Of a DNA stretch of 64,000 nucleotides, positions 57,944 to 61,157 are shown piece by piece. Made by a program: the position numbers and the translations under genes. Within the stretch, counting starts at the first letter, position 1; each line of letters opens with the position of its first letter. This DNA is from Stenotrophomonas sp. ASS1 (GTDB lineage: Bacteria > Pseudomonadota > Gammaproteobacteria > Xanthomonadales > Xanthomonadaceae). A model generated the notes under the pieces. That model did not search any database. It saw nothing but the letters and a program-made list of their open reading frames with translations, and was not told the origin of the DNA. The stretch is taken from contig NZ_CP031167.1 in assembly GCF_004346925.1 (NCBI RefSeq), positions 2,996,001-3,060,000 of the forward strand, written 5' to 3'.

Positions 57944-59851
57944 TCAACGTCCGCGCAGGAACCAGCGGTCGATCTCCGCCAGCGAAAAACGGGCCCAGGT
58001 CGGTCGGCCGTGATTGCACTGGCCCGATCGTTCGGTGATTTCCATGTCGCGCAGCAGCGCGTTCATTTCCGGCACGGTCAGCCGTCGGTTGGCACGCACC
58101 GCGCCATGGCAGGCCATGGTCGACAGCAGCTCATCGCGCGCACTTGCCACACGCCGGCTCTGGCCGTGTTCGCGCAGGTCGGTCAGCACGTCGCGCAGCA
58201 GCCCTTCCGGTTCGGCATGCGCCAGCAGCGCCGGAATGCTGCGCACGTGCAGCGAACCGGGGCCGGCACGGGTCACTTCGAAGCCGAGTGCGGCCAGCGT
58301 TTCGGCTTCGCTTTCGGCGGTGTCGGCCTCGCGCTCGCCCACCGCCAGCGTGATCGGCACCAGCAACGGCTGCGACTGCAGGCCGATGCCATCGTGCGCG
58401 TTCTTCAGCCGCTCGTAGCCGATGCGCTCGTGCGCCGCATGCATGTCGACCACGATCAGGCCTTCGGCGTTCTCGGCCAGGATGTAGATGCCATGCAGCT
58501 GCGCAATCGCGTAGCCCAGCGGCGGCACGCCGGCATCGGCACTGGTGACCGGCAGTCCGTTCTCGGTCGGCATCGACGGCAACGCAGCACCGCGCTCGGC
58601 GCCGGCCGGTGCGGCATACAGCGCGGCATAGGCAGCCGGAGCATCGGCAACCTGCAGCCCCAGTGGCTGTTGCGGGCGCCAGCCTGAGAATCCGCCACCA
58701 CCACCACCGGAGCCAGCGCCGGGTGCGGGACCGCGCACCAGTCCGAAACCGGAGGCGCCCGCGGTTGATGCCACCGGTGCAGCGGCCGCATCCACCGGAT
58801 GCACGGCGCCAGCACCGATCTCCTGCGCCGACATGCCGGCACGGGTATCGGCCAGGGCATCCTTCAGCGTGCGGTAGACAAAATCATGCACCAGCCGCGA
58901 ATCACGGAAACGCACCTCGTGCTTGGCCGGGTGCACGTTGACGTCGACGCGGGTCGGGTCGAGCTCAAGGAACAACACATAGGCCGGCTGGCGGCCGTGG
59001 TACAGCACGTCGCCGTAAGCCATCTTCACCGCGTGGGCGACGCTGCGGTCGCGCACCGAACGGCCGTTGACGTACAGATACTGCTGGTCGGCGCTCGCGC
59101 GCGAGTAATGCGGCTGCGCGATCCAGCCATGCAGGCGCAGGCCGGCACCACTGTGGTCGACGCGCACGGCCTGGTTGGCGAAATCCTCGCCCAGCGTTTC
59201 GGCCAATCGCGCATCGGAATACAGATCGCCCGGCTTGTAGCGGCGCGAGGCCTTGCCGTTGTGCGAGACGCGCAGTTCGACATCCGGCCGCGCCAGCGCC
59301 AGCGAGCGCAGCCATTCTTCGATATGGCCCAGCTCGGTGCGCTCGGCGCGCAGGAACTTGCGCCGCGCCGGTACGTTGTAGAACAGCTCACGCACTTCCA
59401 CCGTGGTGCCCGGCGCATGCGCGCGCGGGGTCACTTCGCCGATCTTGCCGCCTTCGATCTGCAGCGCCGAACCGTGTTCGTCATGTGCGCGGCGCGAGGA
59501 CAGGGTGAAACGGCTGACCGAGGCGATCGACGGCAGCGCTTCGCCACGGAAACCGAGCGTGGCCACCGATTCAAGGTCGTCCAGATCGGCGATCTTGCTG
59601 GTGGCGTGGCGTGAAACCGCCAGTGGCAGCTGTTCCGGTGCGATGCCACTGCCGTTGTCGCGGATACGGATCAGGCGCACGCCGCCCTCTTCAAGATCGA
59701 TATCAACGCGGCTGGCACCGGCATCGATCGCGTTCTCGACCAGTTCCTTGACCACCGACGCAGGACGTTCGACCACTTCGCCGGCGGCGATCTGGTTGAT
59801 GAGGATCTCCGGCAACGGCCGGATCGGGCGCGGATGGGTAGCAGACGTCAT
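57944..59851 (-). CDS. mutL: MutL, DNA mismatch repair protein
   Basis: MutL (635 residues) couples MutS recognition to excision. The GHKL ATPase motifs are [14 protein letters not shown] and [13 protein letters not shown], followed by a flexible Gly/Pro-rich linker (about 340-420) and a C-terminal dimer domain with MHAAHERI. The nuclease motif DQHA(X)2E(X)4E is not present (DMHAAHERI instead), so it is the non-nuclease E. coli-like type. An IS110 element lies 38 bp upstream of the ATG and separates it from amiC. Confidence 0.95.
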
Positions 59852-59857
59852 GCGGGG

Positions 59858-59888
59858 ATGATAACGGAGCGGCCGAGGGTAGAGTCGA
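59858..59888 (-). promoter_or_regulatory. Probable mutL promoter at the IS junction, leaderless type
   Basis: On the minus strand TATCAT (59863-59858) is six bases from the mutL ATG, the same spacing as metX, so the transcript may be leaderless. A TCGACT hexamer 19 bp upstream (59888-59883) is part of the SMAG remnant that ends at the IS boundary. The spacer is long, so the promoter is weak or the true -35 now lies within the IS. Confidence 0.4.
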
Positions 59889-59904
59889 GATCCTATGTTC
59901 GTGG

Positions 59905-60867
59905 TCAAGCCTGCTGGAAGCAGGCTTGACCCACCTTCAGCATGGCCGGATCGAAGTTCCGGCCGCTTTTGAAGACACCCCAGGCGATCCTGGCCAGCTT
60001 TCTGGCCAGGATGTTGAAGACGGCGGTGCTGGGGTGACCGCGTTTTGACAGCTCGTCGTAGAGCGGTTGCCCCCGGCGACACCGCTTGAGCCCCATGGCG
60101 GCCATGTAGAGCATCTGGCGCAGCACTGGCGCGCCCTGTTTGGACAGCCGACGCCGTCCCGTTCTTCCGCCAGACTCGTTGGGCCGGGGATCCAGGCCGG
60201 TGCAGGCGATCCACGCGTTGGCGTTGGCCAACGGCCAGCGCGTCATGTAGTAGATCAGGTGAGCGGCGACAGCGGGGCCGATACCAGGGATGGTCAACAG
60301 GCGCTTGTAGAGCGTGCCATGCTCTCCATCGCGACCCAAGCGCTGCAGTTCGCTTTCCAGCTCGGACAGCGTCCCAGCCAGAGCGCAGAACAGATCTGAC
60401 AGCTCCCCGGGGGCACTTTTGCTTACCCCGAAGGATTGCTCCAGGCGCGCGCGTGTCTTTACCAGCGTCTGCCGCTTGCGCAGCAAATCGTGCATCTGCT
60501 GCTGCTCATCGGTACGCGGTACGTATTCACGCAGGCGATCGTTCTCCTTCTTCACGTATCGGGCGATCGCTTCGGCGTCCATGGCGTCCGTCTTGCCACG
60601 CGAGCCCGTCGCCCGGCCGTAGTGCTTGATCAGACGTGGATTGATCACATAGACAACGTGGCCTGCCTGGCCAGCCATCCGAGCCAACAACTCGTAGTAC
60701 CGCCCCGTCGCCTCCATGCCAATCCGGCATCGCTGGGGCAAGGTGTTGAGCCACTGGGCTATGCCGGCCCGGGTGTTGGCGATCCTGTCGCCGGCCTTGC
60801 GGTCGGCCACTGCCGGTACGAACTCCTTGGAGTCCACGTCCACGCCAATATCGAGAGAATCAGACAT
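59905..60867 (-). CDS. IS110-family transposase
   Basis: This 320-residue protein has the RuvC-like DEDD domain ([11 protein letters not shown] near the start, [18 protein letters not shown]) and a C-terminal Tnp20 domain with [10 protein letters not shown] and [14 protein letters not shown], where Ser is the catalytic nucleophile. Full length (IS621 is 326). The stop is inside an 11-bp hairpin (59904-59930) that may stop transcription from running into mutL. Confidence 0.93.
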
Positions 60868-61093
60868 TTGTACGGCTCCCAGCTATCTTTAAGGGGCTGG
60901 GGTGGTACCGCACCGACGTTAGCTTGCCTACATCGACGATCCCCTTTGGGGGCCGTACGATCCTTTATCGACGTTCGTGTGCGGGATGGGGATCGCTCGA
61001 CTCGTCTGTCGGCTAGTATCCGCAGATGCATGCTTGACGGTCCCTCCACCCTGGCTCCTACATACCGCGTAGGAGCCGGGAGGAACATACAAG
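60868..61093 (-). ncRNA. Candidate bridge RNA region of the IS110 element
   Basis: The 226-bp non-coding left end begins, on the minus strand, with the hairpin GGCTCCTA/TAGGAGCC (61053-61077). Next comes TCAAGCATG (61037-61029), which matches eight of nine bases of the target left half TCGAGCATG. Then GAGTCGAG (61003-60996) exactly complements the target right half plus core, CTCGACTC. A second stem CCCC-AAA-GGGG (60951-60941) is flanked by sequences resembling the donor ends. This order, 5' stem-loop, target loop, donor loop, is that of IS621 bridge RNAs. RNA ends are not defined. Confidence 0.65.
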
Positions 61094-61157
61094 CCATGCT
61101 CGACTGACGGGCTACCGGGAAGGCCCAGTCGAGCGCCGCTCGACTCTACAGAAAGCA

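What the first reader, a model, noticed from the sequence alone, without database searches (positions are those of the whole stretch)
59879..61149. IS110 element inserted inside a SMAG palindrome, with guide-like matches in its own left end
Joining the flanks rebuilds a perfect SMAG monomer (GTAG-AGTCGAGC-CAT-GCTCGACT), and both junctions share AG (CT on the transposase strand), the known core of IS110 recombination. The 226-bp left end contains TCAAGCATG, matching eight of nine bases of the left target half, and GAGTCGAG, an eight-of-eight complement of the right half with core. The order after a 5' hairpin is that of an IS621-type bridge RNA. The element therefore seems programmed to home into a REP that is abundant in this genome, a safe harbour that rarely kills the host. 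The insertion in a SMAG and the matches are seen; the RNA function is inferred.
Basis: partly seen in the sequence, partly recalled or inferred. Interest (0 to 1): 0.85.

Follow-up and report, generated by a model that had tools for sequence, protein, structure and literature searches.

The report
RNA-guided jumping gene targeting SMAG repeats
This is an ordinary-sized bacterial jumping gene of the IS110 family that appears to carry its own guide RNA; all 12 copies in this genome sit in the same short repeat, and in related bacteria the guide and the repeat differ in matching ways, so it is a well-supported new example of a recently discovered kind of RNA-guided DNA insertion.

Summary
A 1206-bp IS110 element (window 59888-61093, minus strand, both CT cores counted) lies inside a SMAG repeat. 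A relative carries the uninterrupted site, identical to the joined flanks. All 12 copies in this genome are in GTCGAGC-loop-GCTCGAC SMAGs at the same position.

The left end folds like an IS621 bridge RNA: 5' hairpin, target loop, donor loop. The circle junction would create a TTGACC-17-TATGTT promoter.

The right target guide is strongly supported. Elements with GAGTCGAG sit at CTCGACT (19/19), those with GAGCCGAG at CTCGGCT (29/29), although both repeat types occur in all but one of the genomes. In two distant families, the guide read from the RNA fits the right junction (CTCCTAC, CTCCCAC).

The left guide resembles the target but is one base out of register at the window copy, and loosely matched in general.

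RNA expression and the 'safe harbour' benefit are untested. IS110 elements that enter REPs, and bridge RNAs, are known, so this is a new member of a known kind.

The parts
59888..61093 (-). IS110-family element, 1206 bp including the CT core at both ends
   Evidence: 12 copies in the genome with the same sharp ends; empty site in a relative
59905..60867 (-). IS110 transposase/recombinase, 320 aa, DEDD (D10, E52, D94, D97) and serine S242
   Evidence: Pfam PF01548 and PF02371; NCBIfam NF033542 'IS110 family RNA-guided transposase' above cut-off; IS621 8wt6 E 2.4e-30; residues conserved
60904..61080 (-). Predicted bridge RNA (approximate ends)
   Evidence: RNA fold z = -2.46 against shuffles; consensus structure with two compensatory pairs; covariance model finds related RNAs upstream of IS110 genes in other families
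61053..61077 (-). 5' stem-loop of the bridge RNA, GGCTCCTACGCGGTATGTAGGAGCC
61027..61035 (-).
   Evidence: target-loop strand that varies between elements; register taken from L100 and L103; match to targets partial
60996..61003 (-). Right target guide GAGTCGAG, exact complement of CTCGACTC
   Evidence: guide-target concordance in sister elements
60959..60966 (-). Left donor guide AAAGGATC, matching the right-end sequence ATAGGAT-C at 7 of 8 bases
   Evidence: by comparison with IS621
60923..60931 (-). Right donor guide GTAGGCAAG, pairing discontinuously with CTTGTAT
   Evidence: same pattern as IS621 A157-U158/C162-G165 with a G.T at position 12; sequence invariant in 9 relatives
61084..61089 (-). 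-10-like TATGTT in the left end
   Evidence: 17-bp spacing to TTGACC across the circle junction
59903..59908 (-). -35-like TTGACC at the right end, joined to the left end only in the circular form
59879..59889 (+). Left part of the interrupted SMAG, GTAGAGTCG plus core AG
61092..61105 (+). Right part of the interrupted SMAG, core AG plus CCATGCTCGACT
61127..61149 (-). Second, inverted SMAG completing a dimer: GTAGAGTCGAGCGGCGCTCGACT

Best explanation
An apparently active IS110-group insertion sequence that finds its targets with a bridge RNA made from its own left end. Excision forms a circle, the circle junction creates a promoter, and the RNA transcribed from it loads the recombinase. The target loop pairs with a SMAG: the right guide pairs with the 3' arm plus the CT core, and the left guide pairs more loosely with the 5' arm and loop. 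The donor loop pairs with the joined ends. Recombination at CT then places the element inside the SMAG without any other change. Shown here: the insertion sites, the empty site, guide-target concordance for the right guide, the predicted fold, the protein family and the promoter geometry. Inferred: transcription, RNA loading and catalysis, which rest on the published experiments with IS621.
For: 12/12 copies in this genome are in the same SMAG type at the same position. The empty site is present in a relative. Right guide against right target: 19/19 and 29/29 concordant (Fisher p about 1e-13 if copies were independent). Both SMAG types are available in nearly all genomes concerned; under choice by counted frequency alone, the joint chance of full concordance is about 5e-10, G045 left out. 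In distant families f159 and f37 the RNA's right guide fits the observed right junctions CT-CCTAC and CT-CCCAC. Fold and model hits. IS621 homology. Circle-junction promoter. Donor guides as in IS621.
Against: No RNA data. The T/C change in the right guide largely follows the transposase clades, so it represents one to a few evolutionary events, not 48. The left guide is one base out of register at the window copy and fits poorly at about half of the sites of some sister elements. Rfam has no matching family.
Confidence: 0.92

Rival explanations
1. The recombinase itself recognises the SMAG hairpin or its sequence, and the guide-like matches are remnants of captured SMAG sequence without function.
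For: The right-guide types go with transposase clades 57% identical to each other, so protein and RNA changes are confounded within the genus. The left guide is a poor match at many sites.
Against: The right-guide rule carries over to distant IS110 elements with unrelated targets. G013 has the C-type right guide in a donor-loop backbone (CACACGAACG) otherwise seen with T-type elements, and all 13 of its right junctions are C-type although T-type SMAGs are the commoner in the listed sample. The experimentally studied members are RNA-guided (PMC11208160, PMC11187229).
Confidence: 0.04
2. A refinement of the best explanation: targeting is RNA-guided but set almost wholly by the 8-nt right guide and core; the left guide contributes little or works with a slipping register because SMAG loops vary from 2 to 4 nt.
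For: Right halves are invariant while left halves vary in loop length and in register. One G013 copy has a left arm of the other SMAG type, while all 13 G013 right junctions read CGGCT.
Against: Left guides still contain arm and loop letters of the repeats, and in the distant elements L100 and L103 the left guide fits in the standard register at 8/9 and 7/9. For IS621, mismatches in the target guides are poorly tolerated (PMC11208160).
Confidence: 0.3
3. The guide matches in the left end are a chance resemblance.
For: The left match alone has about a 6% chance.
Against: Both matches in order within 60 nt: 0.01%. Concordance across sister and distant elements.
Confidence: 0.01

Closest known systems
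IS621 of E. coli and its bridge RNA (PMC11208160, PMC11208158)
   Same: Transposase domains and catalytic residues, CT core, left-end RNA with 5' hairpin, target loop and donor loop, discontinuous right donor guide, circle-junction promoter, insertion in a REP
   Different: Different REP (SMAG); longer right-guide match (8 nt against 4 in IS621); CA where the left guide would pair with the CT core; only distant protein similarity (E 2.4e-30)
ISPpu9, ISPpu10, ISRm19 and ISPa11, IS110-family elements that enter REPs (PMC1525189)
   Same: IS110-family elements found only in REPs, between fixed bases of the repeat
   Different: Other hosts and other REPs; ISPa11 is an IS1111-type element (PMC11187229)
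seekRNA elements of the IS1111/IS110 families (PMC11187229)
   Same: RNA from the long non-coding region directs target choice; natural reprogramming reported
   Different: The studied elements are ISEc21 and IS1111-type elements, not this lineage
ISStma4, ISStma6, ISStma7 (IS110 elements listed for the S. maltophilia complex, PMC13296070)
   Same: Same family and probably same genus; the window element may be one of them or a close relative
   Different: Sequences not available here, so identity could not be tested; the papers found say nothing of SMAG targeting

Membership tests
IS110 family, IS110 group | DEDD RuvC-like domain plus Transposase_20 domain with conserved serine | tested here: met
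IS110 family, IS110 group | Long non-coding end upstream of the transposase (226 nt) and short right end (17 nt), no long terminal inverted repeats | tested here: met
IS110 family, IS110 group | Insertion at a dinucleotide core shared by both junctions, clean empty site | tested here: met
Bridge RNA system (IS621 type) | Left-end RNA folding into 5' stem-loop, target-binding loop and donor-binding loop | tested here: met
   by prediction; model hits upstream of other IS110 genes
Bridge RNA system (IS621 type) | Right target guide complementary to the right target including the core | tested here: met
Bridge RNA system (IS621 type) | Left target guide matching the left target up to the core | tested here: inconclusive
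   6/7 in register for G066, 5/7 for AA-loop sites of this genome, displaced by one at the window copy and at other sites
Bridge RNA system (IS621 type) | Donor guides matching the element's own ends | tested here: met
   AAAGGATC against ATAGGAT-C, GTAGGCAAG against CTTGTAT in the IS621 pattern; compared by eye, no statistic
Bridge RNA system (IS621 type) | Promoter formed at the circle junction | tested here: met
   TTGACC-17-TATGTT, sequence only
Bridge RNA system (IS621 type) | RNA is expressed, binds the recombinase and is needed for recombination | not testable with these tools
   needs RNA sequencing and in vitro assays
SMAG (GTAG REP) as target | GTAG head, 8-bp arms with short loop, many copies, often in dimers | tested here: met
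   185 T-arm and 86 C-arm hairpins in the genome against 1 for the reversed control pattern; dimer at the site; definition from PMC2613905 and PMC3733652

The most novel reading that the evidence does not exclude
In this lineage the bridge RNA has adapted to repeats with variable loop length: an extended right guide fixes the site, and the left guide tolerates a shift of one or two bases relative to the core.
Probability: 0.3. Interest if true: 0.5.

Novelty: new member of a known kind. Interest (0 to 1): 0.42.

Why it matters
It gives a natural series of closely related bridge RNAs whose right guides match the REP variant they enter, with multi-copy genomes that supply many insertion sites. 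That is useful for defining which guide positions matter, and it supplies a 320-aa bridge recombinase with an apparently longer right-guide match. It does not change the picture of how IS110 elements work.

Tried and rejected
The scan of GTDB contigs with the protein found only a distant Olsenella relative. Plasmid records gave no match. Rfam gave no meaningful match. A single fixed register for the left guide was tested in three offsets and fits no element set completely except the small G066 set. L102 has no clear left end and was not used. L104 is a low-scoring hit without a nearby IS110 gene and was dropped. The family-wide model scan added no new genera.

Full report
What is there. On the minus strand of the window, a 320-aa IS110 transposase (60867-59905) is preceded by a 226-nt non-coding left end and followed by a 17-nt right end. 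The element with both CT cores is 59888-61093, 1206 bp. Pfam, NCBIfam and the PDB place the protein with IS621. The DEDD residues D10, E52, D94, D97 and the serine S242 are conserved among relatives; their correspondence to D11, E60, D102, D105 and S241 of IS621 is by motif.

The target. Removing the element gives GTAGAGTCGAGCCATGCTCGACT, a perfect SMAG. A relative (G082) carries precisely this sequence at the same locus, 97% identical over 505 bp. A second, inverted SMAG stands about 20 bp away, so the site was a SMAG dimer. The genome has 12 copies of the element, nearly identical in sequence, and all 12 are in T-arm SMAGs at the same position in the 3' arm. Nine of the 12 are oriented so that CTCGACT is followed by CTAC, the end of the repeat. 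The genome holds 185 T-arm and 86 C-arm hairpins.

The RNA. The left end folds into a 5' stem-loop, a target loop and a donor loop, with an energy 2.5 standard deviations below shuffles and the same consensus in nine relatives. The non-coding region is strongly conserved, although the transposases of the two main groups are only 57% identical. Within the target loop the differences between elements lie in the two guide strands and in the hairpin loop between them. The donor guides follow the IS621 pattern, including the discontinuous right donor guide. In the circular form TTGACC of the right end and TATGTT of the left end would be 17 bp apart, a sigma-70-like promoter, as reported for IS621.

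Right guide against target. Elements of this genome and of G066 carry GAGTCGAG and sit at CTCGACT (12 + 7 copies). Those of G013, G045, G078, G008/G077, G015, G090 and G043 carry GAGCCGAG and sit at CTCGGCT (29 right junctions, G008 and G077 counted once). Both SMAG types occur in all of these genomes except G077, where neither pattern exceeds its control. In G013 T-arm SMAGs outnumber C-arm ones in the listed sample (37 to 24), yet all 13 right junctions are C-type. The copies are not independent evolutionary events, and within the genus guide type and transposase clade mostly go together. G013, whose donor-loop strand resembles the T-type elements, suggests a second event. Two elements from other families of the class, found only through the RNA model, give independent tests: the right guides GGUAGGAG and GUGGGAG fit the right junctions CT-CCTAC and CT-CCCAC, which were looked up afterwards. 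Both of these elements also appear to lie in GTAG- or GTGG-headed repeats.

Left guide. The window's TCAAGCATG matches 8 of 9 left-target bases but ends one base before the core. In the register seen in IS621 and in L100 and L103 (guide, core, one U, stem), the left guides match 6/7 for G066, 5/7 for AA-loop sites in this genome and 5/7 for ATG-loop sites of the C-type group. Other sites are displaced by one or two bases. Either the left guide contributes little here, or it can shift; the data do not decide.

Verdict. Insertion of IS110 elements into REPs (PMC1525189) and their guidance by bridge or seek RNAs (PMC11208160, PMC11187229) are established. No paper found reports this lineage in SMAGs, but papers in subscription journals and ISfinder could not be checked.

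Noticed in passing
59849-59888: The element ends 37 bp upstream of the mutL start codon, between an amidase gene and mutL on the same strand; it could affect mutL expression.
   Followed up: no
L010, L011, L012: Three of the 12 copies have tandem internal duplications: 127 bp covering the whole target loop (L010), 35 bp in the donor loop (L011), 42 bp in the transposase gene (L012). L010 and L011 share nearly the same right breakpoint next to the CCCC-AAA-GGGG hairpin.
   Followed up: partly
L107, L108, L098 (genome G066): Internally deleted copies of 258, 279 and 464 bp with both ends and the target loop but most or all of the transposase gene gone, each in an AA-loop SMAG; possible non-autonomous derivatives.
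   Followed up: partly
alignments A2 and A5: The bridge RNA region is far more conserved between the two element groups than their transposases (57% identity).
   Followed up: no
window 59905-59935: The end of the transposase gene forms a palindrome, TCAAGCCTGCT-TCC-AGCAGGCTTGA, overlapping the -35-like sequence.
   Followed up: no
L010: The flank CGACTGCTTTGAACGGCAGTCGAGCAAGCT occurs on both sides of this copy, consistent with insertion into a tandemly repeated SMAG dimer.
   Followed up: partly
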